NCBI RefSeq assembly: GCF_009192945.1
Contig: NZ_NSET01000004.1
Coordinates: 124,001 to 188,000 of the forward strand
DNA: 64,000 bases
From: Xanthomonas maliensis
GTDB lineage: Bacteria > Pseudomonadota > Gammaproteobacteria > Xanthomonadales > Xanthomonadaceae
Direction: 5' to 3'
The first letter of the stretch is position 1; every line of letters starts with the position of its first letter. The notes beneath the pieces were generated by a model. That model had not been told where the DNA came from, did no database searches, and was given only the letters and a program-made list of their open reading frames with translations. The translations under genes and the position numbers were made by a program. Shown here in pieces: positions 7,411-20,853 of this stretch.

Positions 7411-7826
7411 CGCTGGTGGCCCGGGCGCCGCCGGGCATGCGTCGCAGCGCGTTGTGGCAGCGTGTACAAGCTGACAGCATTGACCTGCATCGACGCCGCG
7501 TGGCGCCGATCGCCCGTGCTTGCTGTTTCTACGCATTGACGTCCATCGATGTCATCAATGCCCGCTTGCGGGACTCGCATCCTGGCTGCTGCGTGCATCC
7601 GCATTGCTCGGCGGCCGCAGACCACCTCCATCGCCCGCTACGCTTGCCGCGGAACAGTTGCGCGCTTGCGCGCCGCTCGCTGGCAATTCCGCCCAACATG
7701 GCAAATCAGTGCTTGGGCCCGCCAGCAAGATCGATCCAACCCGGCTGATCCATTGACATCGTTGTCAGCAATTCCTACACAGCGGCTACCGGCGATCGCG
7801 CCGGAGTCCTCGATCAAGGATTGCCC
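7411..7826. other. Intergenic region upstream of glucokinase
   Basis: About 416 bases with no convincing gene. Short overlapping frames here are arginine/cysteine-rich and unlike real proteins. A weak GCCCGG/CCGGGC hairpin sits shortly after the preceding gene. The notable item is the LacI-type palindrome at 7754-7767, listed separately. The rest looks like leader and promoter DNA for the glucokinase/receptor unit. Confidence 0.5.
7754..7767. promoter_or_regulatory. Candidate LacI-family operator upstream of glk
   Basis: TGACATCGTTGTCA: a 14-base palindrome with arms TGACA/TGTCA around a central CG, the architecture of LacI-family operators. It lies about 60 bases before the glucokinase start. 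Sugar-uptake loci with a TonB-dependent receptor in xanthomonads are commonly controlled by LacI-type repressors. No regulator gene is adjacent, so the assignment is inference. Confidence 0.45.
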
Positions 7827-8861
7827 GTGGTTGCGACCCCGCGTTCCGCCCCTGCTTCTGCGTGGCCGGCTACCTCCAGCGGCACGGGCCTGATTGCCGC
7901 CGATGTCGGTGGTACGCATGTCCGCATCGCCAGCGTGCATGCCCACGGCGCTGCCATGGAGCTGGCGCACTACCGCACCTATCGCTGCGCCGAACACGCC
8001 AGTCTGGAAGCGATCGTGGGCGACTTCCTGGCCGCGACGGCGGTGCCCCGGCAATCATTGGTGATCGCTGCGCCCGGCGTGGCACTGGACGATGGCAACG
8101 TGGTCAGCAACAACCTGCCATGGCCGCTGTCGCGGCATCGGTTGCGTGCCACGCTGGAGCTGCGCAGCGTGCAACTGGTCAACGACTTCGAAGCAGTCGC
8201 CTATGCGGCGCCGCAGATGGCGCTCAGCGCAGTGGCCCAGCTCAGCGGACCGACGCCGCGGCATGCACGCGCCACCGGGCCGATCCTGGTGGTCGGTCCC
8301 GGTACCGGGTTGGGGGCCGCCGTCTGGATCGACGCGACGCCGCATCCGGTCGTGTTGGCGACCGAGGCCGGACAGATGGCCTTGGCCAGTGACCAGCCGC
8401 AGGAACAGCTGCTGCTGCAACGCATGCGTCGGGGACAGTCTTACCTGCCGCTGGAGCACGTGCTGTCCGGCCCCGGGCTACAACGTCTGTACCTGGCGTT
8501 GTGCGATCGGCAGGGCGAGCAGCCGCGCCATGCGCAACCGGATGCGATCACCCATGCCGCCCTGCATACGGACGATGCGCTGGCGCGCACCTGCCTGCAG
8601 CTGTTCTGCGGTTGGCTCGGCAGCGCGGTCGGCGACATGGCGCTCGCCTACGCCGCGACCGGCGGCATCTACCTTGCCGGCGGCATCCTGCCCTCGCTGG
8701 CGCCGTTCCTGGCCAGTAGCGAGTTCCGAGTGCGCTTTCTGGACAAGGGCCGCATGCGCGCCGTCCTGGAAGGCATTCCGGTGCATGTGGTCGAACATGG
8801 ACAGCTCGGCGTGCGTGGCGCCGCCAGCTGGTATCTGCAACAGCGGCACGATCAGTCCTAG
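7827..8861 (+). CDS. glk: Glucokinase
   Basis: A 344-residue glucokinase of the bacterial Glk family, which phosphorylates glucose with ATP at the entry to glycolysis and the Entner-Doudoroff pathway. The phosphate-binding motif LIAADVGGTHVRIA lies near residue 20, the catalytic Asp is in LVNDFEAVAYA, and GPGTGLGAAVW, EAGQMAL and LAGGILPSL are further family signatures. The start is GTG at 7827, preceded by AAGGA with six bases of spacing; a TTG six bases earlier lies too close to that site. Followed by a TonB-dependent receptor on the same strand, which together with the upstream LacI-type palindrome suggests a sugar import and phosphorylation locus. Confidence 0.92.
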   Translation: MVATPRSAPASAWPATSSGTGLIAADVGGTHVRIASVHAHGAAMELAHYRTYRCAEHASLEAIVGDFLAATAVPRQSLVIAAPGVALDDGNVVSNNLPWPLSRHRLRATLELRSVQLVNDFEAVAYAAPQMALSAVAQLSGPTPRHARATGPILVVGPGTGLGAAVWIDATPHPVVLATEAGQMALASDQPQEQLLLQRMRRGQSYLPLEHVLSGPGLQRLYLALCDRQGEQPRHAQPDAITHAALHTDDALARTCLQLFCGWLGSAVGDMALAYAATGGIYLAGGILPSLAPFLASSEFRVRFLDKGRMRAVLEGIPVHVVEHGQLGVRGAASWYLQQRHDQS

Positions 8862-8969: not shown

Positions 8970-11588
8970 ATGAAGCACCGTCCTGCTTTGCTGTCCGGCG
9001 CGATTGCCGCCGCCCTGACGTTTGCCGCACACGCGCAACAGGCCACCGACCTGGATGCCGTGCAGGTCGTCGGCATCCGTGCCAGCCTGGAAAAATCGCT
9101 GGATACCAAACGCAACAACGCCGGCGTGTCCGAAGCCATCACCGCCGAAGACATTGGCAAGTTTCCCAGCACCAATGTCGCCGAGGCCTTGTCGCAGATT
9201 CCCGGCGTCACCCTGGATCGCCGCTTCGGCCAGGGCGAGCGCGTCAGCATCGACGGCACCGACCCCAGCCTCAATCTGTCCTTCCTCGACGGCCATCCGG
9301 TCGCGCAAGCCATCTGGCTGTATGGCGAGCAGCCCAATCGCGGCTTCGACTACACCTTGCTGGCGCCGCAGATTCTTGGTCGGGCCGAGATTATCAAATC
9401 CTCCGAAGCGCGCCTCACCGAAGGCAGCCTGGGCGGCACGGTGCTGATGCAGACCCGGCAACCGCTGGATCTGGACGTCAACGAAGTGGCGGCGTCGGTC
9501 GGCTACAGTTATAGCGCACAGGCCAGCCAGGGCAAGCCGAACGCGGCGATCCTCTACAGCTGGAAGAATCCGGCGCAGACCTTCGGCATCGCAGTGTCCG
9601 CGCAGCATTACGAAGAGCGGGTGGATCGCCGCGGCATGGAGGTGTTCGGCTATGCGCCGGCCTCCACCTTCGCCAATGCCGCTGGCGTCCCGGCCGATGC
9701 GGATGTTCCCAACTCGATCAACTCTGCCTGGTTCCAGCAGGACCGCGAACGCGACAGTGCCGTGGTCAACCTGCAGTTCAAACCCAGTGACGCGCTGGAA
9801 TTCAATCTCAGCGGTCTGTACATCAACGAGAGCTTCGACAACTACAACCAGTCGATGTACAGCTTCCTGACCTGGAATCCCGGGACCGTGGCCGCGGTGG
9901 ACCGGCTGGGCGATGTCCGCAATGGCGTGGTGAACAGCGGCCACTCCAGCGCCAATGCCGACCCGCTGGGCGGCACGGTGATCTACGACAACAACGTGCG
10001 TGAGTCGGAGGTCACCACGCGCGGCCTGGATCTGCGCGGCGCGTTCCGCGGCGAGCGCTGGGGGCTGAAAGGGCAACTGGGCCAGAGCAAGTCGGAGAAC
10101 AACGATTTATCGCAATACTTCATCGAGCCGTTCTACAACGGCGGCTTCAGCTGGGACACCCGCCGCGGCATTCGTTTCGACGATCCGGCCGCTGCGCGCG
10201 CCCCGGCCAACTGGGGCTCGGCCGGCGGCTGGTTCGGCAACAACGGGATCTTCTCCACCGAGAGCAAGGACCGCTACGGCCAGCTGGATCTGGATCTGCG
10301 CATGGATGGACCGTTCAACCAGCTGCTGCTGGGTGTACGCCACGGCAAGCACGAGGAGCGCTTCGTGCTGAACGTCTATGGCGGCGTCACCCCGGGGACG
10401 CTGGCCGATGTCGGCACCATCGGACTGACCGACCTGCAGGGCTTCTACCCGGATCATGGCCGCCACGTGCAGGCCGGCCGCAACAACGTGCTGGCCTGGA
10501 TCCGCAACAGCCCGGTCGACTACGGCGCACCGGACCCGTCCAGTTATCTCAACAACACCTGGGCGCTGGAGCAGACCAATAACGCCGCCTATGCGCAGCT
10601 CAACTTTTCCGCCAACGGCTTGCGCGGCAATCTCGGCCTGCGCTATGTCGATTCCAAGACCGAAGGGAGCGGCTTCGTCTATAGCGGCACGCCCACGCTG
10701 CAGAACGCCGACAGCCTGTGGCAGACCCGCACGCGCAAGGAAGACTTTCTGCTGCCGTCGCTGACCCTGGCTTACGACGTCGGCGAAGACTGGGTGCTGC
10801 GCTTTGCGGCCGCCAAGGTGATTGCCTGGGCGCCCTACAACCAGATGGTCAACAACACCTTCCTCAACGACACCACCCTGACCGGCAGCGGCGGCAATGC
10901 CGACCTGTCGCCCTACCAATCATGGAATTTCAACCTCTCGGCCGAGTATTACTTCGCCCGGCAGGCGGTGGTGGCGTGGTCGGTGTTCTACAAGAAGATC
11001 GACAACTACATCGACACCAGCGCGCGCATCGAGCGCCAATACAACGCCTTGCGCGACACCGCGCCGCAGAGCTGGGCGCAAGTGGTCGGCAGCAATGGCT
11101 GCACCGCCGACGGCTATTGCGACTACAGCATCCAGCGCCCGCGCAATGCCGGCGATGGCAAGGTCAAGGGCTTCACCCTGGCGTTCCAGCAACCCTTCGG
11201 CGACAGCGGCTTCGGCCTGACCAGCAGCTACACCTACGCCAGCGGCGAGAACAATACCGGCGACCCGCTGCCTTACCAGTCCCGCAACAGCATCGCGGTC
11301 AGCCCGTACTTCGAAAAAGGCCCGCTCAATGCACGCCTTACCTACAACTGGCGCGACAGTTACCTGGCCGGCGGCTACGTGGCCGGTGCCGCGCCCGCCA
11401 GCGTGGACGACTATGCCGAACTCGGGGCCAGCATCGGCTACGCGTTCGACGCGCATTGGTCGCTGCAACTGGACGCACAGAATCTGCTCGACGAAGAGTA
11501 TCTGCAGTATCTGGGCGACAAGGACCATCTGGCAGGCCGCTACAAGAGCGGCCGTCGCTACATGGCCACGCTGCATCTGAAGTTCTGA
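8970..11588 (+). CDS. TonB-dependent outer-membrane receptor
   Basis: An 872-residue TonB-dependent receptor with a signal peptide (MKHRPALLSGAIAAALTFAAHA|QQ). The plug domain begins DLDAVQVVGIRASLEKSLDTKR and carries ITAEDIGKFPSTNVAEALSQ and IPGVTLDRRFGQG, typical of the large carbohydrate-associated receptor group seen in Caulobacter and Xanthomonas. The C-terminal beta-barrel ends with LDAQNLLDEEYLQYLGDKDH and a terminal Phe (TLHLKF), the outer-membrane insertion signal. Start ATG at 8970 follows a strong GAGGAGAG site. Location after glucokinase implies uptake of a glucose-containing oligosaccharide, but the substrate is inference. Confidence 0.93.
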   Translation: MKHRPALLSGAIAAALTFAAHAQQATDLDAVQVVGIRASLEKSLDTKRNNAGVSEAITAEDIGKFPSTNVAEALSQIPGVTLDRRFGQGERVSIDGTDPSLNLSFLDGHPVAQAIWLYGEQPNRGFDYTLLAPQILGRAEIIKSSEARLTEGSLGGTVLMQTRQPLDLDVNEVAASVGYSYSAQASQGKPNAAILYSWKNPAQTFGIAVSAQHYEERVDRRGMEVFGYAPASTFANAAGVPADADVPNSINSAWFQQDRERDSAVVNLQFKPSDALEFNLSGLYINESFDNYNQSMYSFLTWNPGTVAAVDRLGDVRNGVVNSGHSSANADPLGGTVIYDNNVRESEVTTRGLDLRGAFRGERWGLKGQLGQSKSENNDLSQYFIEPFYNGGFSWDTRRGIRFDDPAAARAPANWGSAGGWFGNNGIFSTESKDRYGQLDLDLRMDGPFNQLLLGVRHGKHEERFVLNVYGGVTPGTLADVGTIGLTDLQGFYPDHGRHVQAGRNNVLAWIRNSPVDYGAPDPSSYLNNTWALEQTNNAAYAQLNFSANGLRGNLGLRYVDSKTEGSGFVYSGTPTLQNADSLWQTRTRKEDFLLPSLTLAYDVGEDWVLRFAAAKVIAWAPYNQMVNNTFLNDTTLTGSGGNADLSPYQSWNFNLSAEYYFARQAVVAWSVFYKKIDNYIDTSARIERQYNALRDTAPQSWAQVVGSNGCTADGYCDYSIQRPRNAGDGKVKGFTLAFQQPFGDSGFGLTSSYTYASGENNTGDPLPYQSRNSIAVSPYFEKGPLNARLTYNWRDSYLAGGYVAGAAPASVDDYAELGASIGYAFDAHWSLQLDAQNLLDEEYLQYLGDKDHLAGRYKSGRRYMATLHLKF

Positions 11589-11595
11589 CGATGCC

Positions 11596-11622
11596 GACCG
11601 GCCATCCTCAGGGTGGCCGGTC
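11596..11622. terminator. Bidirectional hairpin between convergent receptor and hrpA genes
   Basis: GACCGGCCA pairs with TGGCCGGTC, and the inner bases can extend the stem to about 12 pairs with a three-base loop. It is placed exactly between the stop codons of two convergent genes. There is no T-run on either strand, so the assignment rests on stem strength and position. Confidence 0.65.
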
Positions 11623-11640
11623 GGGTGTCGGGCGGCTGGG

Positions 11641-14600
11641 TCATCCGCCCAGTGCCGCCACCCGTTGCGCCAGCTTTTTGGCCGAAATCCCTGACTTCGC
11701 ACCCAGCTCCTGCGCGAACACCGACACCCGTAACTCCTCCAGATCCCAACGCAGTGCCTGCCACTCCGGGCGCTGCGTCAACCCGCGGGCGGCGGCGTCC
11801 TGTAGCGCATCGACGAACGGCTTGAGTTCGAGCATCCGCGCCTGATCGCGGGCCGGATCGCGCTTGGCCCGCTCGGTGCGCAGAATCATCGCCTTCAGAT
11901 AGCGCGGATAGTTCGCCAATGCCTCGGCCGGGGTCTGGCGGAGGAATCCGGCATGCACCAGCGCCTGCAACTGCGCCTCCATGTCGTCCAGATTGCCGCG
12001 CGCCCACCCCATCAAGGGTGCCTCCAGCAATGGCTTGAGTTCGGCCACCGCGGCCAGAATGGCTTCGGCCAACTTCAACCGCTCCATCGCCTCGCCGAAC
12101 AAGCGCTTGGACGCGTCGTCGCGGCGCTGTGCGAACGCACCGGGATCGCGGATCGCCGCCAGGCCCTCGGCCAGTACCGCGTTCAGCGCGGCATCGACCA
12201 GATCGCCGCGCAAGCGTTCCTGCGACTCGATCGCCGCGTACAGCAAGCCGGTCTTGGGCGAGACCGGCAACTGCTTGCGTGCCTGCTTGATCTTGTCGGC
12301 CAGCGCGATCTCGAGCAGGCGGCGGACACCGCCGGGGTGCGCCTGTAGCGCCTGGGTGCGGTCGGCGAAGATCTGCAGCGCGGCGGCATCGCCTTGATCC
12401 ACCAGGGCCGGATACGCAGGCACGCCGGCTTCGCCCGGTACCTGCGCGGGAATCGGCGCCGCCGGAAACTCGCGCAGTCCTTCGGCCGCCAGCGCGCGAC
12501 CGGCACGCGCAGCGAACGCCTGCCCGGCACGCTCGCCGAAGCGGGCGCGCAGCGCAGCCAGATCGCGCGATTCGGCCAGCACCTTGCCCTGCTCATCGCG
12601 CAGTCGCAGGTTCATGCGCAGATGCGGCTCCAGCGCCGCCTCATCGAAGTCCAGTGCGACCACCGGCACGCCGGTGGCCTTGGCGAGAAAACGCGCCAGC
12701 TCGCCACGCATCTCATCGGCCGACGGCGTGCCGTAGGCTTCGTAGAAGGCGCGCGCGAAATCCGGAGCCGGCACGAAATTGCGGCGTTGCGCCTTGGGCA
12801 GGCCACGGATCAAGGCGGCTGCCTTGTCGGCGACGAAGCCAGGCGCCAACCAGGATAGCCGCGCCGGATCCAGCGCATTGAGCAAATGCAGCGGCACCTC
12901 CAGCGTCACGCCGTCGTCGGCAGCGCCCGGCTCGAAGCGATAATGCAGCGCCAACCGCGCATCGCCCAGCGGCAAATACTTGGGGTACCGATCCGCCTCG
13001 CTGCCTTCGCCCGGCAACAGATCCAGCAATGACCAGTGCAGCCCGCGCCGCTTGTCCGCCGGCAGGTTCTTCCACCACGCGTCCAGCCCGCTGGCCGAAT
13101 GCAACTCGGCAGGCACGCGGTCCAGATACCAACGCGCCTGCCAGTCCTCGTCGGCGACGATGCCTGCCCGCCGCAACTTGGCTTCCTCTTCACGCGCCTG
13201 CTCCAGCACCTTCAGGTTGTCGGCGACGAAACCGGCGCGCGTATTGATCTCGCCGGGGACCAAGCCCTGGCGAACGAACAGGTCGTGTGCAGCGGCCGGA
13301 TCGATCTTGCTAAAATGCACCGGCTTCTTCGGCGCCAGCACCAGTCCGAACAGACTGATCTGCTCGGAAGCGATCACCTGCCCCTGCGCGCGCGACCAGT
13401 GCGGGTCGAAGTGCTTGCGCGCCAGTAGATGCGGCAATTCGGCAATGGCCCATTCCGGTTCGATCGCCGCATTGGTCAGGCCCCAGACCTTCTGGGTGTC
13501 GAGCAAGGTCGCTGCCAGGATCCACGGCGGCGGCTTGCGCGCCAGGGTCGAACCAGGAAACGGCAGGAACCTGCGCTGCCGCGCCGCCAGAAAATCGCCC
13601 TTCTCGGTGCGATGTCCGATCTGCGTCGGCAGGCCGGCCAGCAGTGCGCGATGCAGGGCCTGATAGGCGGCTGCGCGTTCGCGTTCGTTGCGACGCGGCG
13701 ACGCCTGCCCGGCCTGCTCCTGGGTGCTGATGGCGAGCGCGGGGCCTTCAGGCGTGGTCGTCGGATCGGACTTGCCCTCGCGCGCCAGTCGCGCGGCGCG
13801 ATGCAACTGGCCGCGGGTCGGACGGTTGGACGCCTGGCCATCGTCGCGCAACGGCGCATTGGACCCTGCCAACAACGGGGTGAACGTGGCCTCGGCCGGT
13901 TCCTCGCTCCACCCCAGTTCCTCGCACAACAGACGCAGTTGCCGATGTAGCTCGCGCCACTCGCGCATGCGCAGGAAGCCGAGGAAATGGCGACCGCACC
14001 AGTCGCGCAAGCGCGACTGCGTCAGGTCCTCATGGGCCTGCCGGTAGGCCTCCCACAAGCGGAGGATGCCGACGAATTCCGAGCGCGCATCGGCGAACTG
14101 CGCGTGCGCGTTGTCGGCCGCCTCGCGCGCTTCCGGCGGTCGCTCACGCGGATCCTGGATCCCCAGGAACGCGGCGATCACGATCATCGCGCGCAGGCAG
14201 CCGTGCTGGTGCGCGGCCACCAGCATGCGGGCGAGCTTGACGTCGACCGGCAACCGCGCCATCTGCCGCCCGATCGTCGTCAACCGCCGCTCGCCATCGA
14301 TGGCGCCCAGCTCCAGCAATTGCTGCCAGCCATCGGCCACGGCGCGTTCGTCCGGCGCTTCCAGAAACGGGAAGTCCTCGATCCGGCCCAGGCCCAGCTG
14401 CAGCATGCGCAGGATCACCCCGGCCAGCGAAGAACGCCGGATCTCCGGATCGGTGAAGGCCGGGCGTGCGGCGAAATCCGCTTCCGCGTACAGGCGATAG
14501 CAGATGCCCTCGGCGACGCGGCCGCAACGCCCCATGCGTTGATTGGCACTGGCCTGCGACACCGGCTCGATGTGCAGACGGTCGAGCTTCTGCCGCGGAC

Positions 14601-15759
14601 TGTAGCGCTTGACCCGCGCCAGCCCGGGATCGACCACGTAGCGGATACGCGGCACCGTCAGCGAGGTCTCGGCGACGTTGGTGGCCAGCACCAGTCGGCG
14701 CTGCGGTCCGGGTTGGAACACCCGATCCTGGTCGTTGGCCGATAGCCGCGCATACAGCGGCACCACTTCGGTCTGGCGGTACTTGCGCCGCTCCAGCGCC
14801 TGATGCGCATCGCGGATCTCGCGCTCGCCCGGCAGGAAGACCAGCACATCGCCACGCGGATCGGCCTGGGTGATCTCGTCGACGGCCGCCACGATCGCCT
14901 CGTTGAGCGTGCGCTCGCCATTGCGGCCGTCCTCGTCGTCGCCGTCCGCATCGGCAGCGGCCTGGCCCTCCAATGGACGATAGCGCACCTGGACCGGATA
15001 GGTGCGTCCTTCCACCCCGATCACCGGCGCATCGCCGAAATGGCGCGCGAAGCGTTCGGTATCGATGGTCGCCGAGGTCACGATCAGCTTCAGGTCCGGC
15101 CGCTTCTTCAGCAACTGTTTCAGATAGCCGAGCAGGAAGTCGATGTTGAGGCTGCGCTCGTGCGCCTCGTCGATGATCAAGGTGTCGTAGGCCGACAGCC
15201 AGCGATCGCTGGCGATTTCAGCCAGCAGGATGCCGTCGGTCATGAACTTGATGCGCGACTGCTCGCCGACGCGGTCGGTGAAGCGCACCTGGAAGCCGAC
15301 CGTCGTCCCCAGCGGCGTCTGCAACTCCTCGGCCACGCGCGCGGCCACCGCGCGCGCAGCGATCCGGCGCGGTTGCGTGCACCCGATCATGCCGGCCACG
15401 CCGCGCCCGGCCGCCAGGCACAGCTTGGGCAACTGGGTGGTCTTGCCGGAACCGGTCTCGCCCGCGATCACCACCACCTGGTGGTCGCGGATCAGCGCCA
15501 CGATGCGCTCGGCCTCGCGTGCGATCGGCAGCTGCGCGTCGAGCGTGATCGCCGGGGCGTCCTCTGCGCGCGCCTGCCGCTGCGCCTGCGACGCCGCCAA
15601 CGCCTGTTCGAAGGCCTCGCGCAGCTGGGTATTGCCGGGCTTGCTCTGCCAGCGCGACCATAGCCCGAGCAGGCGGCCGCGGTCGCGGCTCATGGCCGCG
15701 TCGACGGCGCGCCGGCGCTCACGCAAGGTGGCGGCAAGCGTCTGATCGATAGCGCTCAT
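11641..15759 (-). CDS. hrpA: ATP-dependent RNA helicase HrpA
   Basis: A 1372-residue DEAH-box helicase. Walker A is GETGSGKTTQLPK (from residue 100), motif Ia includes TQPRRIAARAVA, motif II is DEAH (197-200), motif III SAT (229-231), and motif VI is QRMGRCGRVAEG. The helicase core is followed by the HA2 and OB-fold regions and the long C-terminal DUF3418-type extension of proteobacterial HrpA. HrpA unwinds RNA; in E. coli it has been implicated in mRNA processing and in rescuing stalled or collided ribosomes. ATG at 15759 is the start, divergent from dps across 88 bases. Length is close to the ~1300-residue family norm. Confidence 0.95.
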   Translation of the reverse strand: MSAIDQTLAATLRERRRAVDAAMSRDRGRLLGLWSRWQSKPGNTQLREAFEQALAASQAQRQARAEDAPAITLDAQLPIAREAERIVALIRDHQVVVIAGETGSGKTTQLPKLCLAAGRGVAGMIGCTQPRRIAARAVAARVAEELQTPLGTTVGFQVRFTDRVGEQSRIKFMTDGILLAEIASDRWLSAYDTLIIDEAHERSLNIDFLLGYLKQLLKKRPDLKLIVTSATIDTERFARHFGDAPVIGVEGRTYPVQVRYRPLEGQAAADADGDDEDGRNGERTLNEAIVAAVDEITQADPRGDVLVFLPGEREIRDAHQALERRKYRQTEVVPLYARLSANDQDRVFQPGPQRRLVLATNVAETSLTVPRIRYVVDPGLARVKRYSPRQKLDRLHIEPVSQASANQRMGRCGRVAEGICYRLYAEADFAARPAFTDPEIRRSSLAGVILRMLQLGLGRIEDFPFLEAPDERAVADGWQQLLELGAIDGERRLTTIGRQMARLPVDVKLARMLVAAHQHGCLRAMIVIAAFLGIQDPRERPPEAREAADNAHAQFADARSEFVGILRLWEAYRQAHEDLTQSRLRDWCGRHFLGFLRMREWRELHRQLRLLCEELGWSEEPAEATFTPLLAGSNAPLRDDGQASNRPTRGQLHRAARLAREGKSDPTTTPEGPALAISTQEQAGQASPRRNERERAAAYQALHRALLAGLPTQIGHRTEKGDFLAARQRRFLPFPGSTLARKPPPWILAATLLDTQKVWGLTNAAIEPEWAIAELPHLLARKHFDPHWSRAQGQVIASEQISLFGLVLAPKKPVHFSKIDPAAAHDLFVRQGLVPGEINTRAGFVADNLKVLEQAREEEAKLRRAGIVADEDWQARWYLDRVPAELHSASGLDAWWKNLPADKRRGLHWSLLDLLPGEGSEADRYPKYLPLGDARLALHYRFEPGAADDGVTLEVPLHLLNALDPARLSWLAPGFVADKAAALIRGLPKAQRRNFVPAPDFARAFYEAYGTPSADEMRGELARFLAKATGVPVVALDFDEAALEPHLRMNLRLRDEQGKVLAESRDLAALRARFGERAGQAFAARAGRALAAEGLREFPAAPIPAQVPGEAGVPAYPALVDQGDAAALQIFADRTQALQAHPGGVRRLLEIALADKIKQARKQLPVSPKTGLLYAAIESQERLRGDLVDAALNAVLAEGLAAIRDPGAFAQRRDDASKRLFGEAMERLKLAEAILAAVAELKPLLEAPLMGWARGNLDDMEAQLQALVHAGFLRQTPAEALANYPRYLKAMILRTERAKRDPARDQARMLELKPFVDALQDAAARGLTQRPEWQALRWDLEELRVSVFAQELGAKSGISAKKLAQRVAALGG

Positions 15760-15847
15760 CGATGCGTTGGTGTGAAAAATTGCATGACAAAAGATCCTTT
15801 AGCCTGTCTATTGTGACGCCATATCTCTTCCCGAGGAGGATTTCCCG
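15760..15847. promoter_or_regulatory. Divergent promoter region hrpA/dps
   Basis: An 88-base AT-richer gap holding both promoters. On the plus strand a TTGACA-like ATGACA (15784-15789) and TATTGT (15809-15814) are separated by 19 bases, a weak candidate for dps. A strong ribosome binding site AGGAGGA lies at 15834-15840, seven bases before the dps ATG. I cannot confirm an OxyR site by eye. Confidence 0.4.
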
Positions 15848-16408
15848 ATGGCCAAGAAGAACGCATCTCCCAAGTCCAGCTCCCCCAAGCGCAGCGGCAA
15901 GGACACCCTGCCGATGTCGGCACCGTCGGCGCCACAGATCGATATCGGGATCAAGGACGCCGATCGCAAGAAGATCTCCGATGGTCTGGCCCGCTACATG
16001 GCCGACGCTTTCACCCTGTACCTGAAGACCCACAACTTCCACTGGAACGTCACCGGGTCGATGTTCAATTCGCTGCACACCATGTTCGAGACCCAGTACA
16101 CCGAGCAGTGGGGCGCGCTGGACGAGGTGGCCGAGCGCATCCGTGCGCTGGGATACAACGCGCCGGGCTCGTACCGCGAATTCGTCGCACTGACCTCGAT
16201 TCCCGAGGAGCCGGGCCTGAGCGATAGCGCCGACTGGCGTGAAATGGTGCGCCAGCTGGTCAGCGGCAACGAGGCGGTCTGCCGCACCGCGCGCAAGGTA
16301 CTGGGCACTGCCGACGATGCCGGCGACGACCCGACCGTGGACCTGTTGACCCAGCGCCTGCAGACCCACGAGAAGTACGCCTGGATGCTGCGCTCGCTGT
16401 TGCAGTAG
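15848..16408 (+). CDS. dps: Dps-family DNA-protecting ferritin
   Basis: A 186-residue Dps/mini-ferritin that stores iron and protects DNA from oxidative damage as a dodecamer. The ferroxidase signature is clear: LKTHNFHWNVTGSMFNSLHT, then FETQYTEQWGALDEVAERIR, with the metal-binding His, Asp and Glu residues at the expected dimer-interface positions. The N-terminal tail (MAKKNASPKSSSPKRSGK) is lysine- and serine-rich, suited to direct DNA binding. A strong ribosome binding site suggests high expression, and a perfect hairpin follows the gene. Confidence 0.94.
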   Translation: MAKKNASPKSSSPKRSGKDTLPMSAPSAPQIDIGIKDADRKKISDGLARYMADAFTLYLKTHNFHWNVTGSMFNSLHTMFETQYTEQWGALDEVAERIRALGYNAPGSYREFVALTSIPEEPGLSDSADWREMVRQLVSGNEAVCRTARKVLGTADDAGDDPTVDLLTQRLQTHEKYAWMLRSLLQ

Positions 16409-16429
16409 GCGGTCACGGCAGGGACAGAA

Positions 16430-16455
16430 GCCATTGCGTGCGGAGACGCAATGGC
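16430..16455 (+). terminator. Terminator-like hairpin after dps
   Basis: GCCATTGCGT and ACGCAATGGC form a perfect 10-base stem with a six-base loop, 21 bases after the dps stop. No T-run follows, so termination may be partly Rho-assisted. Confidence 0.65.
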
Positions 16456-16731
16456 ATGACTCGCGTGCAACATCCGGATCGAGCCCGGAGGGACAGGCAG
16501 CGCAACGTTTCAATCGTGCTGCCCGTTCACGACAGCACATGCCAGGGCGCTACGCCTGGGCCAACAGCCATTATTGCAAGCCCGGCGCGCCTTTCCCTCC
16601 GCGCTGCACACGCAGATCGGCACTCTGCAGCGCAGGGCGCAGACAGCCACAAGACCCGTTCCGGCCCCGACCATTCAGACCGCCAGCGTCAGCAGAGCTG
16701 ATGCACGGTCTGCAATCCAACGCCAGGCGTT
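16456..16731. other. Intergenic stretch after dps
   Basis: About 276 bases with no supportable gene. A plus-strand frame through here continues antisense into the neighbouring minus-strand gene but has Arg/Pro/Ser-rich composition unlike a protein. I see no repeat or strong promoter. Confidence 0.4.
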
Positions 16732-17154
16732 CTAACGCAATCTGGAGACCAGAAACAACGGGCAGGTCAGCCGCATATTGGCCTCATCACGGCATATCAC
16801 CACCGTATTTGAGTCCCAACGCAGCCAACGCGGAGCAGTCGATTCGAAGGTTCGACTGCGGATGGATGGGCGCTCGGCATACCCCAGCCGATGGAGTCGA
16901 GCCGCCATCGACGCTGCCTGGGCGGCGGGCAGGCATGTGGTGACCGGCAGATTGAGCAGGCGCATCGCGACCGCGGCGAGCATGGCGCCGATAGCCGCAC
17001 CACGCGCCATTCCGGCATCGTCGAAAAGAAGCTGGATGAGCTCAGCGACGCAGCCGACGCTACCGATCACCACCACCAGCCACAGCCCCGCGTCTCGCCA
17101 CGATCCGAAAGGATTGCAGGAGACGACCTGCCATTTTTTGCGTTCGCCCATCAT
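16732..17154 (-). CDS. Small two-helix membrane protein, possible partner or immunity protein of the adjacent bacteriocin-like peptide
   Basis: A 140-residue protein starting MMGERKKWQVVSCNPFGSW. Two hydrophobic segments are visible: LWLVVVIGSVGCVAELIQLL (about 24-43) and AAIGAMLAAVAMRLL (about 53-67). A soluble basic C-terminal half follows, rich in Arg (RLHRLGYAERPSIRSRTF). I do not recognise a family. It lies downstream of, and on the same strand as, the 77-residue GA-leader peptide at 17326-17559. Small multi-helix membrane proteins beside class II bacteriocin genes are commonly their immunity proteins, so that role is inferred from position alone. Codon use fits a real gene better than the opposing frames. 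The ribosome binding site is weak. Confidence 0.55.
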   Translation of the reverse strand: MMGERKKWQVVSCNPFGSWRDAGLWLVVVIGSVGCVAELIQLLFDDAGMARGAAIGAMLAAVAMRLLNLPVTTCLPAAQAASMAARLHRLGYAERPSIRSRTFESTAPRWLRWDSNTVVICRDEANMRLTCPLFLVSRLR

Positions 17155-17325
17155 TTTGCTTATCCAACTCTCGTTTGGAACGCTGACGCTGCAAAGCTGA
17201 CGTCGCTCGCCCTGAAGACTACCGAGCCATTTCCAGCAGTTGCCAGGCGGGGGTTGGGGGGCGGCGCTTGGACGCCCCGGCCAGGCCCCGCCTCGCGGAT
17301 ACCAAGGCCTATCTGCTAGTTGCGC

Positions 17326-17559
17326 TTACTCGAGCGCCCGCCCCACCAGACCGCCGATCGCTGCCCCTGCTGCAGCCCCGATGATGATGCCTGCGACTTC
17401 GCCAGCCGGACCGCCGACCCAGCTGATCTCTGCCCCAATCGCCGCACCGGCGCGTGCACCAGCAAGCCAGCCGCCTGCGCCACCAGCTCCGGTGGCCGCA
17501 TCGGCAATCACACCGGCACCGGACACCTGCATGACTTCGGACTCTGAGAGAACGAACAT
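17326..17559 (-). CDS. Double-glycine-type leader bacteriocin-like peptide (class II / microcin-like precursor)
   Basis: A 77-residue peptide. The N-terminus MFVLSESEVMQVSGA matches the leader consensus of peptides exported by peptidase-containing ABC transporters: LS-x2-E-x3-VSG[GA], with cleavage predicted after Gly-Ala at residue 15. The mature part (about 62 residues) is almost entirely Gly, Ala and hydrophobic residues, with many GxxxG-like spacings (GAGGAGGWLAG, GIIIGAAAGAAIGGLVG) and one Trp in each half. This composition is typical of membrane-active class IIb bacteriocins and colicin V-type peptides; related Gly-Ala-rich precursors with such leaders are annotated in Xylella and Xanthomonas. 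AAAGGA gives a good ribosome binding site nine bases before the ATG. No transporter/peptidase gene is nearby, so export would need one in trans. Confidence 0.75.
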   Translation of the reverse strand: MFVLSESEVMQVSGAGVIADAATGAGGAGGWLAGARAGAAIGAEISWVGGPAGEVAGIIIGAAAGAAIGGLVGRALE

Positions 17560-17947
17560 CTTCTATATTCCTTTCCATTTGACGGCAGTGTGCTCCTGCC
17601 TGAGCATCGGCTGACGGCGGTCGCCATCGTCGATCTGGGGAGGGCAGCAGACCGGTCGTGCCATATCTGCTGGCGTCTCGCCCGTTCATGGAAGCGCAGA
17701 GGTGCCCTGACCGACAAGCCAATTGCTGTGCGGCAAACGACATGCCTAGAACACCATGTCGAATGAATGCGACACCGCCTGGCGCGGCACACTGCACCGG
17801 GCAGAATCGAACACCGGCACCCGTGTCCCACGGTGCACCGATCACGATGGGAGACTTCTCCCGTCGCGGCAACTTCCGACGTTCGCTTGCGCACGGCACT
17901 CAGGCATTGACCGGGCCAAGGCTTGACCTGCGCGGTATCCTAGGCCG
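17560..17947. other. Divergent intergenic region, bacteriocin-like gene / recQ
   Basis: About 388 bases with no supportable gene. Long overlapping frames on both strands are Arg/Cys/Ser-rich noise. It should contain the promoter for the minus-strand bacteriocin-like gene and that of recQ. I found no clear operator or repeat. Confidence 0.45.
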
Positions 17948-19753
17948 ATGCCTTCCCCCGCCCACGAACTGCTCAGCCGCGTCTTCGGTTACGACGACTT
18001 CCGCGGCCCCCAGCAAGCGATCGTCGAGCATGTCGCTGCCGGCAACGACGCGCTGGTGCTGATGCCGACCGGCGGCGGCAAGTCGCTGTGCTATCAGGTG
18101 CCGGCCTTGCTGCGCCAGGGCATCGGCATCGTGGTCTCGCCGCTGATCGCCTTGATGCAGGACCAGGTCGAAGCCCTGCGCCAGCTCGGCGTGCGCGCCG
18201 AGTTCCTCAATTCCACCCTGGACGCGGAGAACGCGCAGCGGGTCGAACGGGCCCTGCTGGCCGGCGAGCTGGACCTGCTGTATGTCGCCCCGGAACGCCT
18301 GCTGACGCCACGCTTCCTGTCGCTGCTGGAGCGCAGCAGGATCGCCCTGTTCGCCATCGACGAGGCCCATTGCGTCTCGCAATGGGGGCACGACTTCCGT
18401 CCGGAATACCGCCAGCTGACCGTGTTGCACGAACGCTGGCCGCAGATCCCGCGCATGGCGCTGACCGCCACTGCCGACCCGCCGACCCAGCGCGAGATCG
18501 CAGAACGGCTGGATCTGGTGGAGGCGCGGCATTTCGTCAGCTCGTTCGACCGTCCCAATATCCGCTACACCGTGGTGCAGAAGGACAACGCACGCCGCCA
18601 GCTGCAGGACTTCCTGCACCGCCAGCGTGGCGTGGCCGGCATCGTCTATGCGATGTCGCGACGCAAGGTCGAGGAGACCGCGCAGCAGCTCTGCGCACAG
18701 GGCTTCAACGCCCTGCCCTACCACGCCGGCCTGCCGGCCGAGGTACGCGCGGAAAACCAGCGGCGTTTCCTGCGCGAAGACGGCATCGTCATGGTCGCCA
18801 CGATCGCCTTCGGCATGGGGATCGACAAGCCGGACGTGCGCTTCGTGGCGCATGTGGACCTGCCGAAGTCGCTGGAAGGCTACTACCAGGAAACTGGCCG
18901 CGCCGGCCGCGATGGCGAGCCGGCCGAAGCCTGGCTCTGCTATGGCCTGGGCGATGTGGTGCTGCTCAAACAGATGATCGAGCAGGGCGAGGCTGCCGAA
19001 GAACGCAAGCGGCTGGAACGCGCCAAGCTCGACCACCTGCTCGGCTATTGCGAATCGATGCAATGCCGCCGTCAGGTCCTGCTGGCTGGCTTTGGCGAAA
19101 CCTACCCCAAGCCCTGCGGCAACTGCGACAACTGCCTGACCCCGGCGGCGGCCTGGGATGCGACGATCGCCGCGCAGAAGGCGTTGAGCTGCGTCTATCG
19201 CAGCGGGCAGCGCTTCGGTGTCGGCCACCTGATCGACATCCTGCGCGGTAGCGACAACGAGCGCATCCGCCAACTTGGCCATGCCCAATTGAGCACCTAC
19301 GGCATCGGCCGCGACCTGGACGAGCGGACCTGGCGCAGCGTCTTCCGCCAGCTGGTGGCGGCCAGCCTGCTGGAAGTCGACAGCGAGGGCCACGGCGGCC
19401 TGCGCCTGACCGATGCCAGCCGACAGGTGCTCAAGGGCGCCCGCCAGGTCATGATGCGACGCGAACATCCGGCCGCGGCGCGCGAGCGCGATCGCAGCAG
19501 CACCCCGCGCACCGGCGTGCCGGTGCAGCCGCAGGACCTGGCCTTGTTCAACGCCCTGCGCGGCCTCCGTGCCGAACTGGCACGCGCGCAGAACGTGCCG
19601 GCATTCGTGATCTTCCACGACAGCACGCTGCGCAACATCGCCGAACAGCGCCCGACCAGCATCGACGCATTGGCGCGCGTCGGTGGGATCGGCGGCGGCA
19701 AACTGGCGCGCTATGGCGACCAATTGATCGAGATCGTTCGCGAACAGGGTTGA
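17948..19753 (+). CDS. recQ: ATP-dependent DNA helicase RecQ
   Basis: A 601-residue 3'-5' DNA helicase acting in recombination and repair of stalled forks. Motif 0 [14 protein letters not shown] is followed by Walker [13 protein letters not shown] (TGGGKS at 41-46), [17 protein letters not shown] (DEAH 138-141), and motif [21 protein letters not shown]. The RecQ-Ct zinc site is visible as [12 protein letters not shown] followed by CGNCDNC, then the winged-helix region ([19 protein letters not shown]). An HRDC domain closes the protein ([33 protein letters not shown]). Length and order match full-length proteobacterial RecQ. Confidence 0.97.
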
Positions 19754-19875
19754 CCGCTGGTCGCGCCCGAACCGCCGCCAGCAGTGGTCATCGATTGCGA
19801 CAGCGCGCATTCAATCAGCCATTGCTAGCTTTTCCCTGTGCCGGCACTGCTGTCGGCCCTTGCCGAGTCAGACCG

Positions 19876-20373
19876 ATGAAACGCAGCCTGCTCCTCCTGG
19901 TCATGATGTCCGCCGCCGGTGGCGCCCTCGCGCAGAATGGCGACAGCACCGGCACCGATAGCGGCGCAACCGCAACCATGCCGCGCGGACTGGACCTGAG
20001 CGTGCCTTCCGCGCCGGTGCAGTACCGGTCCGACCCCACCTACAGCAACGACCCGCCAGGGACGTTCTACGGCGACAAGACCGGGCCCCGCCCGGCCATC
20101 AGCCAGCCTGGCGCTGCCACACTTGCCGCGGAGCGCGCCGAACAGTGCCAGGGGAAACTGCATGGTGCGGTCGAGACCGGCATCGGCTATTCCAGCCGTG
20201 GCGGCAACAGTAACTGGCAGGCCGCCAACCTGAATTCGTGCAAGACCTATTACGACGACGACGGCAAGGCGCACCAGATCGGCGTCAGCATCAGTGTCGG
20301 TCGCGGCGAAGGTCCCGTTTTCGGCCCGCGCTATGCCCCCGGCTATTACGGGCCACGTCCATTCGGCTGGTAA
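19876..20373 (+). CDS. Secreted hypothetical protein
   Basis: A 165-residue protein beginning with a Sec signal peptide (MKRSLLLLVMMSAAGGALA|QNGDS). The mature part is low-complexity at the start (Ser/Thr/Gly/Asp), then a Pro/Tyr segment (RSDPTYSNDPPGTFYGDKTGP), a pair of Cys residues (AEQCQGKLHG and LNSCKTYYDDD) that may form a disulfide, and a Pro/Gly/Tyr-rich end (RYAPGYYGPRPFGW). I do not recognise a family. The frame is open upstream to the recQ stop, but the signal peptide fixes ATG at 19876. Probably periplasmic or surface-located. Confidence 0.75.
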   Translation: MKRSLLLLVMMSAAGGALAQNGDSTGTDSGATATMPRGLDLSVPSAPVQYRSDPTYSNDPPGTFYGDKTGPRPAISQPGAATLAAERAEQCQGKLHGAVETGIGYSSRGGNSNWQAANLNSCKTYYDDDGKAHQIGVSISVGRGEGPVFGPRYAPGYYGPRPFGW

Positions 20374-20451
20374 GCGTACAGTCGCGTCTGCGTTGACGGA
20401 CGGTTCACCGCCGGTTTGCGGAGAATGCGGTCTGCCTCATGAGATGGTGTC

Positions 20452-20853
20452 ATGTCACAAAACAAGGAACGGCCGGTTGTGTTCGTCGTCGAAGACGGTG
20501 ATGGCACCCGACAACTCAGTTGCCTTGTGCTGGAGAGCTACGGCTTTACCTGCCGCAGCGCCGGTTCGGTCGAGGACGCTTTGGCGTTGATCGAGCAGGA
20601 CCCCCGCGTCGATGTGCTGTTTTCGGATATCCACTTCCCAGGCGGCTTGACCGGTGTTGATCTGGCGGTGCGCGCGAGCGGCGCCCCCTACCACCTGCCC
20701 ACGCTCCTGACCTCCGGCCTGGCAGTGGAATACGTGGAAGAAATCCTTCCGGAGGGTGTCGCCTTCCTTGAAAAGCCGTATACGCCGGATCAATTGTTGA
20801 CCGCGATCCGGAGCGTGATGGCCCGGCATCGGGTCTCGACCTCGGTCGATTGA
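20452..20853 (+). CDS. Single-domain response regulator (CheY-like receiver)
   Basis: A 133-residue stand-alone receiver domain. Acidic-pocket residues are in FVVEDGDGTR (E14, D15), the phosphoacceptor Asp59 is in VLFSDIHFPGG, the switch Thr/Ser is in LLTSG, and the conserved Lys is in FLEKPYTPDQL. Gly follows the acidic pair where many receivers have a second Asp, but the essential residues are present. There is no output domain, so it probably acts through protein interaction or phosphotransfer. No histidine kinase is adjacent; the nearest candidate partner family is the kinase at 28568-29644, about 8 kb away. The VLFSDIHFPGG style resembles receivers paired with HWE kinases. Confidence 0.85.
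   Translation: MSQNKERPVVFVVEDGDGTRQLSCLVLESYGFTCRSAGSVEDALALIEQDPRVDVLFSDIHFPGGLTGVDLAVRASGAPYHLPTLLTSGLAVEYVEEILPEGVAFLEKPYTPDQLLTAIRSVMARHRVSTSVD

What the first reader, a model, noticed from the sequence alone, without database searches (positions are those of the whole stretch)
17326..17559. Unlinked class II bacteriocin-like precursor with a Gly-Ala leader
The 77-residue product opens with MFVLSESEVMQVSGA, matching the LS-x2-E-x3-VSG[GA] leader recognised by peptidase-containing ABC exporters. The remainder is an almost pure Gly/Ala/hydrophobic segment full of GxxxG-like spacings. No exporter, peptidase or modification gene is adjacent, so this is a solitary toxin or signalling peptide relying on export in trans. 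Leader and composition are seen directly; antibacterial activity is inference.
Basis: partly seen in the sequence, partly recalled or inferred. Interest (0 to 1): 0.7.

Follow-up and report, generated by a model that had tools for sequence, protein, structure and literature searches.

The report
Exporterless bacteriocin-like peptide with partner gene
A plant-associated Xanthomonas carries a small, strongly conserved bacteriocin-like peptide gene next to a possible self-protection gene but away from any export pump gene, so the peptide probably leaves the cell through a pump encoded elsewhere in the genome.

Summary
The ORF is real. It lies on the minus strand (17559 to 17326), encodes 77 aa and carries a double-glycine-type leader ending in Gly-Ala. 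It is conserved as protein: in Xanthomonas axonopodis DSM 3585 it is 96% identical, without indels, with 29 of 33 nucleotide changes at codon position 3 and dN/dS about 0.03. A relative in Nitrospirillum is 74% identical and ends its leader in Gly-Gly. Ten Gly pairs are spaced GxxxG where shuffles give 4.7.

'Solitary' is wrong. A same-strand, faster-evolving gene for a 139-aa protein with two hydrophobic segments follows. It occurs in the same 2 of 35 genus genomes and is the best candidate immunity gene. Together they form a block of about 1.1 kb between dps and recQ, absent there in 28 of 30 loci checked. In X. oryzae a deposited protein reads most of the peptide and the partner as one frame.

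No C39 exporter match lies on this contig. The genome has two: one in a raxX-raxST cluster, one elsewhere. The rax exporter is the only one orthologous between the two cassette genomes.

Best reading: an orphan glycine-zipper class II bacteriocin/microcin-like precursor with its own immunity gene, exported in trans. Killing, immunity and the exporter are inferred. New member of a known kind.

The parts
17326..17559 (-). Precursor peptide, 77 aa: double-glycine-type leader (residues 1-15) followed by a 62-aa Gly/Ala-rich glycine-zipper body
17515..17559 (-). Leader coding part (residues 1-15); predicted C39 cleavage after Gly14-Ala15
   Evidence: sequence; Nitrospirillum relative ends VSGG; Gly-Ala leaders beside C39 exporters in the family
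16732..17151 (-). Partner gene, 139 aa from the ATG shared with X. axonopodis (140 aa if the preceding ATG is used): two hydrophobic segments near residues 17-46 and 48-76, then a basic C-terminal part; candidate immunity protein
16722..17860 (.). Block of about 1.1 kb found between dps and recQ in cassette genomes only; left edge from the alignment with X. axonopodis, right edge from where recQ-side identity to empty sites stops; both edges approximate
17560..17860 (-). Upstream stretch, 67% identical with gaps; AAAGGAAT ribosome-binding-like stretch just before the ATG in both species; no site found with simple sigma-70, sigma-54 or PIP-box patterns
15848..16408 (+). Flank: dps (ferritin-like domain), not part of the system
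17948..19753 (+). Flank: recQ helicase, not part of the system

Best explanation
A two-gene bacteriocin-like cassette. The 77-aa precursor carries a leader recognised by a C39-peptidase ABC exporter encoded elsewhere in the genome. The leader is removed after Gly14-Ala15 during export. The 62-aa glycine-zipper peptide then packs as helices into membranes of competing cells, close relatives above all, and permeabilises them. The protein encoded just downstream sits in the membrane and protects the producer. Shown here: the leader's presence and conservation, the zipper spacing, strong purifying selection on the peptide, linkage and co-occurrence of the partner, and C39 exporters in the genome but not on this contig. 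Inferred: cleavage, export, killing and immunity.
For: Leader fits LSxxExxxVxGG/A, and the Nitrospirillum relative has VSGG. dN/dS is about 0.03 and there are no indels. GxxxG spacing is enriched. Two C39 exporters exist in the genome and two in the other cassette genome. Distant full-length relatives sit within about 1.5 kb of C39-type ABC and/or HlyD genes in 7 of 7 non-cassette loci examined, 5 of 7 with Gly-Ala leaders. One exporter-linked relative (L058) passes the Pfam Bacteriocin_IIc cut-off (32.1 against 27.1 bits); the Nitrospirillum relative scores 17.4, below it. The partner occurs in the same 2 of 35 genomes, is 70.5% identical and faster evolving (dN 0.18, dS 1.07), and has two hydrophobic segments. 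The known two-protein bacteriocin system Cdz uses glycine-zipper peptides, a type I exporter and a small, mainly inner-membrane immunity protein (PMC5380434, abstract and passages).
Against: The peptide itself matches no Pfam or NCBIfam bacteriocin model. The partner has no match over a cut-off in Pfam or NCBIfam and none in PADLOC, PHROGs or PDB sequences, so 'immunity' rests on position, size, hydrophobic segments and co-occurrence. The peptide is much better conserved than the partner, whereas toxin and immunity often diverge together (general knowledge). No activity or transcription data and no recognisable promoter. In X. oryzae the two genes are read as one frame, which fits loss of function there. 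The relatives examined keep their exporter close by; this cassette does not.
Confidence: 0.58

Rival explanations
1. A secreted signalling or surface-structuring peptide rather than a toxin: leader-dependent export by a C39 exporter, then assembly through glycine zippers on the cell surface or sensing by kin; the partner is a membrane receptor or anchor.
For: Strong conservation of the peptide, also across classes, suits a ligand or structural peptide. RaxX, another leader-bearing peptide of the genus exported by a C39 exporter, mimics a plant peptide hormone and is not a toxin (PMC6637879, abstract and passages).
Against: Relatives sit in exporter-linked loci that resemble bacteriocin clusters, some with two peptides together. 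The partner shows no receptor or kinase domain in Pfam. Glycine zippers occur in class II pore-forming peptides (general knowledge).
Confidence: 0.2
2. An unexported membrane glycine-zipper peptide whose leader-like start is incidental, acting inside the cell as a toxin-antitoxin-like pair with the partner, or as an envelope protein.
For: The only NCBIfam matches are weak ones of the body to OmpA-type glycine-zipper lipoproteins. No C39 match on the contig.
Against: The leader matches the consensus at its key positions, is identical in both Xanthomonas copies and ends GG in Nitrospirillum; 0 of 40 simulated windows give such a leader. No lipobox or Sec signal is seen by eye.
Confidence: 0.12
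3. A decaying relic of a formerly exporter-linked bacteriocin cluster, kept mainly for the protective partner gene.
For: No exporter at the locus while the relatives examined have one; one-frame form in X. oryzae with the partner whole; patchy presence.
Against: Strong purifying selection on the peptide, leader included, between two lineages at synonymous divergence 0.7.
Confidence: 0.1

Closest known systems
Cdz system of Caulobacter crescentus (CdzC/CdzD, CdzA/B, CdzI)
   Same: Small glycine-zipper peptides with an N-terminal export region and processed forms, type I export, small membrane immunity protein in the cluster (PMC5380434, abstract and passages seen)
   Different: Cdz has two peptides and its exporter in the same cluster, and CdzI has three predicted membrane segments; here one peptide, no C39 exporter on the contig, partner with two hydrophobic segments. 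No sequence comparison with CdzC, CdzD or CdzI was made.
Class II bacteriocins with double-glycine leader (Pfam PF10439 Bacteriocin_IIc)
   Same: Leader type, length, Gly-rich body; an exporter-linked distant relative of the peptide passes the family cut-off
   Different: The window peptide gets no match and its Nitrospirillum relative stays below the cut-off
Class II microcins and Xanthomonas microcin candidates (PMC13174018)
   Same: Gram-negative C39/HlyD export, GG/GA/GS cleavage sites, candidate immunity genes of 50-250 aa nearby (passages and section 16)
Orphan Blp-family bacteriocin gene of Xylella fastidiosa
   Same: Same bacterial family as I recall it; gene without its own ABC exporter (PMC11885251, passage seen)
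   Different: Described there as lacking an associated immunity gene and lying among prophage-related genes; here a partner gene is present and the flanks are dps and recQ
RaxX and its exporter RaxAB
   Same: Leader-bearing peptide exported by RaxB; sulfotransferase gene of the rax cluster present in both cassette genomes
   Different: RaxX is a tyrosine-sulfated plant-peptide mimic with its own cluster; no similarity to this peptide is apparent by eye apart from leader spacing (not computed)

Membership tests
Double-glycine-leader (C39 substrate) peptides | Leader LSxxExxxVxG[GAS] close to the N terminus of a short precursor | tested here: met
   Gly-Ala as last pair, as in 5 of 7 exporter-linked relatives examined
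Double-glycine-leader (C39 substrate) peptides | C39-peptidase exporter encoded in the genome | tested here: met
   2 matches over the cut-off in the own genome, on contigs C93 and C81, not on the window's contig C76
Double-glycine-leader (C39 substrate) peptides | Precursor is cleaved and exported by such an exporter | not testable with these tools
   Needs biochemistry
PF10439 Bacteriocin_IIc | Score over the curated cut-off (27.1 bits) | tested here: not met
   Window peptide: no match up to E 1; Nitrospirillum relative 17.4 bits; distant exporter-linked relative L058 32.1 bits
Cdz-like two-peptide glycine-zipper system | Two zipper peptides plus exporter in one cluster | tested here: not met
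   One peptide; stretches between and upstream are gapped without a shared frame; no C39 match on the contig
Cdz-like two-peptide glycine-zipper system | GxxxG glycine-zipper body | tested here: met
   10 GxxxG pairs against 4.7 in shuffles, p 0.0016
Cdz-like two-peptide glycine-zipper system | Adjacent small membrane immunity protein | tested here: inconclusive
   Adjacent, conserved, co-occurring protein with two hydrophobic segments; protection untested
Bacteriocin (any class) | Kills or inhibits related bacteria | not testable with these tools

The most novel reading that the evidence does not exclude
RaxAB, the exporter known for the plant-hormone mimic RaxX, also processes and exports this bacteriocin-like peptide in cassette-bearing Xanthomonas, so that one exporter serves both host mimicry and competition with other bacteria. 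The rax exporter is the only one of the two C39 exporters in each cassette genome that the two share as an ortholog (97.6% identical); the second ones are only 51.5% identical to each other. Both cassette genomes are among the 8 of 35 genus genomes with the rax sulfotransferase; the chance of that alone is 0.047.
Probability: 0.25. Interest if true: 0.68.

Novelty: new member of a known kind. Interest (0 to 1): 0.42.

Why it matters
It adds a conserved, exporterless bacteriocin-type cassette to Xanthomonas. The protein searches showed no separate annotated copy of the peptide from Xanthomonas (limited to similar lengths and shared words; records of the window's genome may be left out), only the part inside a fused X. 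oryzae hypothetical protein. It also gives a concrete pair, RaxAB and this peptide, with which to test whether a peptidase exporter known for one peptide serves a second, unlinked one. Substrates of such exporters in the genus are partly open: PctAB is called putative, with insufficient information on its substrates, in PMC12448352 (passages).

Tried and rejected
Considered and rejected. (1) Chance ORF: rejected on codon-position pattern, lack of indels and the Nitrospirillum relative. (2) Antisense coding: 7 of 77 changes against 3 of 77 in sense, and no leader. (3) A second peptide in the cassette: flanking stretches carry gaps and no shared frame. (4) Phage or plasmid cargo: no match in the phage and plasmid collections (BLAST's low-complexity filter may hide such a peptide); of 62 pattern matches in viral contigs none was confirmed. 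However, PHROGs family phrog_29560 (unknown function) matches the peptide over residues 1-74 at E 3e-6 and P0001 at 1e-7, so a virus-borne relative is on record and was not located. In 329 phylum genomes that profile hit 4, the own one included; the other three lie in frames of 400, 734 and 695 aa. (5) A match of the partner in G584: 59 residues with a stop inside, over other frames; dropped. (6) Weak matches of the single peptide: 3 in 149 family genomes in frames of 235, 461 and 128 aa, not followed; 1 in 35 genus genomes, G155, is a distant exporter-linked relative and is not counted as a cassette genome. (7) Hits of the zipper profile in 91 of 395 family genomes: most start after the leader and lie in longer frames, so they are taken as general glycine-zipper proteins. 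The conclusion about exporter linkage uses only the 7 non-cassette loci that were fetched and have a match from model position 1 in a short frame; 6 further matches from position 1 had no locus and were not examined. (8) L016: taken as an ordinary glycine-zipper lipoprotein, by eye. (9) Leader peptides beside the genome's second exporter: a few weak pattern matches in L004, none with a zipper body. (10) Rfam: nothing at 15500-20500 over gathering scores. Spacer RNA fold z -0.36, unremarkable. (11) Structure prediction was tried 9 times for the partner and once for the peptide; the machine was busy each time and no structure was obtained. (12) The Nitrospirillum locus itself was not reached, so its neighbours are unknown. 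(13) One search failed on wrong coordinates of mine and was repeated rightly; the shuffle test left out one residue and was redone.

Full report
What is there. The finding's coordinates hold an ORF on the minus strand, 17559 down to 17326: ATG start, 77 codons, TAA stop. It begins MFVLSESEVMQVSGA and goes on as a 62-residue body with 18 Gly and 19 Ala. GxxxG pairs number 10 against 4.7 in composition shuffles (p 0.0016), with no excess at any other spacing from 1 to 7. A strict leader pattern finds this ORF alone in the window and nothing in 40 simulated windows; the pattern was chosen after the fact.

Conservation. A close copy lies in Xanthomonas axonopodis DSM 3585 (L011; by contig position the same locus as handle G092). 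It is 96% identical, has no gap in 234 columns, and its 33 nucleotide changes fall 3/1/29 on the codon positions (dN 0.018, dS 0.71). The neighbouring dps, recQ and helicase genes, as far as L011 holds them, have dS 0.43, 0.61 and 0.64, so the peptide gene is about as diverged in this pair as its surroundings. The stretch upstream is 67% identical with gaps, and that between the two cassette genes 56% with gaps. One antisense frame is also open and shares third positions with the peptide; it changes 7 of 77 residues against 3 of 77. In a search of 5.8 billion proteins, limited to similar lengths and shared words, the only hit at E up to 0.01 was a Nitrospirillum protein (P0001), 74% identical over the alignment, whose leader ends VSGG. 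Its neighbourhood was not reached.

A partner gene. On the same strand and 174 bases further, an ORF of 139 codons (16732-17151) starts at the ATG shared with X. axonopodis. It is 70.5% identical there, again without gaps, dN 0.18 and dS 1.07. It has two hydrophobic segments and a basic C-terminal half. It occurs in the same 2 of 35 genus genomes as the peptide (the chance of the same two is 0.0017, although linkage makes them one event; a third, weak peptide match in G155 is a distant exporter-linked relative). A profile search across 395 family genomes found these two and one match that I take as chance. It has no match over a cut-off in Pfam or NCBIfam and none in PADLOC, PHROGs or PDB sequences. 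I read it as the immunity protein; this is inference.

X. oryzae. A profile of the two partner proteins found a deposited 247-aa hypothetical protein of Xanthomonas oryzae with 13 member sequences (P0003). Read as deposited, it runs from the last six residues of the leader through most of the zipper body, through 44 residues with no counterpart in the other two proteins, into a whole partner protein. So the pair exists in a third species, where the end of the peptide and its stop are gone and both are one frame. Whether the start of the leader remains there was not seen. This supports the two genes being a unit and is consistent with loss of the free peptide in that lineage.

Location and history. 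In 28 of the 30 genus loci fetched around recQ (35 genomes have recQ), dps lies 217-758 bases from recQ and neither cassette gene is found. In the own genome and in X. axonopodis dps is not within the 1500 bases held; in the window the gap is 1539 bases. The shared block runs from 16722, just past the partner's stop, to the recQ side. Of the 28 empty loci, 26 match the window's gap, all only within 17859-17947. A recQ tree does not place the two cassette genomes together, and by distance species nearer to each lack the cassette (the own genome has a long branch and several supports are low). Patchy inheritance by recombination through the flanks, as proposed for the rax cluster (PMC6637879, passages), or repeated loss, would explain this.

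Exporters. The genome has two C39 matches over the cut-off, on contigs C93 and C81, while the window is on C76. C93 carries a raxX-raxSTAB-type cluster: a sulfotransferase (Pfam), HlyD and the C39 exporter, with a divergent 62-aa frame that NCBIfam names RaxX (114.2 against a cut-off of 40 bits), between a glycine dehydrogenase and an MFS transporter gene; this is the published layout. C81 carries HlyD and the exporter beside ribosomal protein genes (by eye), with no leader peptide found. X. axonopodis also has two. Its rax exporter is 97.6% identical to the own one, but its other one is only 51.5% identical to the own C81 exporter. The rax sulfotransferase is found in 8 of 35 genomes, both cassette genomes included (chance 0.047). 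RaxAB is therefore the most economical exporter, though this is weak evidence. A published precedent for loose specificity: PctAB of X. oryzae can partly replace RaxAB for RaxX (PMC12448352, passages).

Relatives. A wider profile (A4, six sequences) found leader-plus-zipper relatives in the family. In all 7 non-cassette loci examined a C39-type ABC and/or HlyD gene lies within about 1.5 kb; the leader of the matched peptide ends GA in 5, GS in 1 and GG in 1; two loci show a second leader peptide in the same listing, and G155 has one too. Both cassette loci lack exporter genes in the same span. One gammaproteobacterial relative (G296) has an exporter end, two peptides and a hydrophobic frame in a row, and its peptide passes the Pfam Bacteriocin_IIc cut-off (32.1 bits). 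Direct BLAST between that peptide and the window peptide is not significant; the link is by profile. The window peptide does not match the Pfam model.

Mechanism. Most likely: leader-directed export by a trans-acting C39 exporter, cleavage after Gly-Ala, insertion of the zipper peptide in membranes of competitors, and protection of self by the partner. The closest characterised analogue is Cdz of Caulobacter (PMC5380434, abstract and passages), which differs in having two peptides and a linked exporter. No sequence homology to Cdz was tested. Rival readings (signal, internal toxin pair, relic) are listed with their tests.

Novelty. Leader peptides, glycine-zipper bacteriocins and even exporterless bacteriocin genes are known (for Xylella). 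I therefore file this as a new member of a known kind. Literature searches. None of the passages read names this peptide, but the supplementary candidate list of PMC13174018 was not available, so prior listing there is not excluded.

Noticed in passing
P0003 (X. oryzae, deposited protein): Most of the peptide and the partner gene are read as one 247-aa frame in a cluster of 13 deposited sequences; annotated only as hypothetical protein.
   Followed up: partly
L003 7616-12571 (G000:C93): The window's genome carries a rax-type cluster: sulfotransferase, HlyD, C39 exporter, and a divergent RaxX frame at 7664-7852 minus that passes the NCBIfam RaxX cut-off.
   Followed up: yes
L004 7435-12517 (G000:C81): Second C39 exporter beside ribosomal protein genes, followed by an unexplained frame (10918-11895) and a 2OG-Fe(II) oxygenase-like protein below the family cut-offs (11948-12517); no leader peptide found beside it.
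   Followed up: partly
L049 7927-8754: In X. axonopodis a rhomboid-domain protein gene (Pfam 60.2 bits; rhombosortase model below its cut-off) lies directly beside the second C39 exporter.
   Followed up: partly
window 17326-17559 against phrog_29560: A PHROGs family of unknown function from viruses of bacteria and archaea matches leader and body over residues 1-74 (E 3e-6), so a virus-borne relative exists; the record was not located.
   Followed up: partly
L052 4612-4764 and 6780-6977; L057 2438-2671; L091 to L095, L106, L116: Several exporter-linked leader peptides in Xanthomonas and relatives, many with Gly-Ala or Gly-Ser cleavage pairs; not checked against the literature.
   Followed up: partly
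window 17722-17745: A block of 24 bases upstream of the peptide (GCATGTCGTTTGCCGCACAGCAAT on the minus strand) has one difference in X. axonopodis inside otherwise diverged DNA; possible regulatory site.
   Followed up: no
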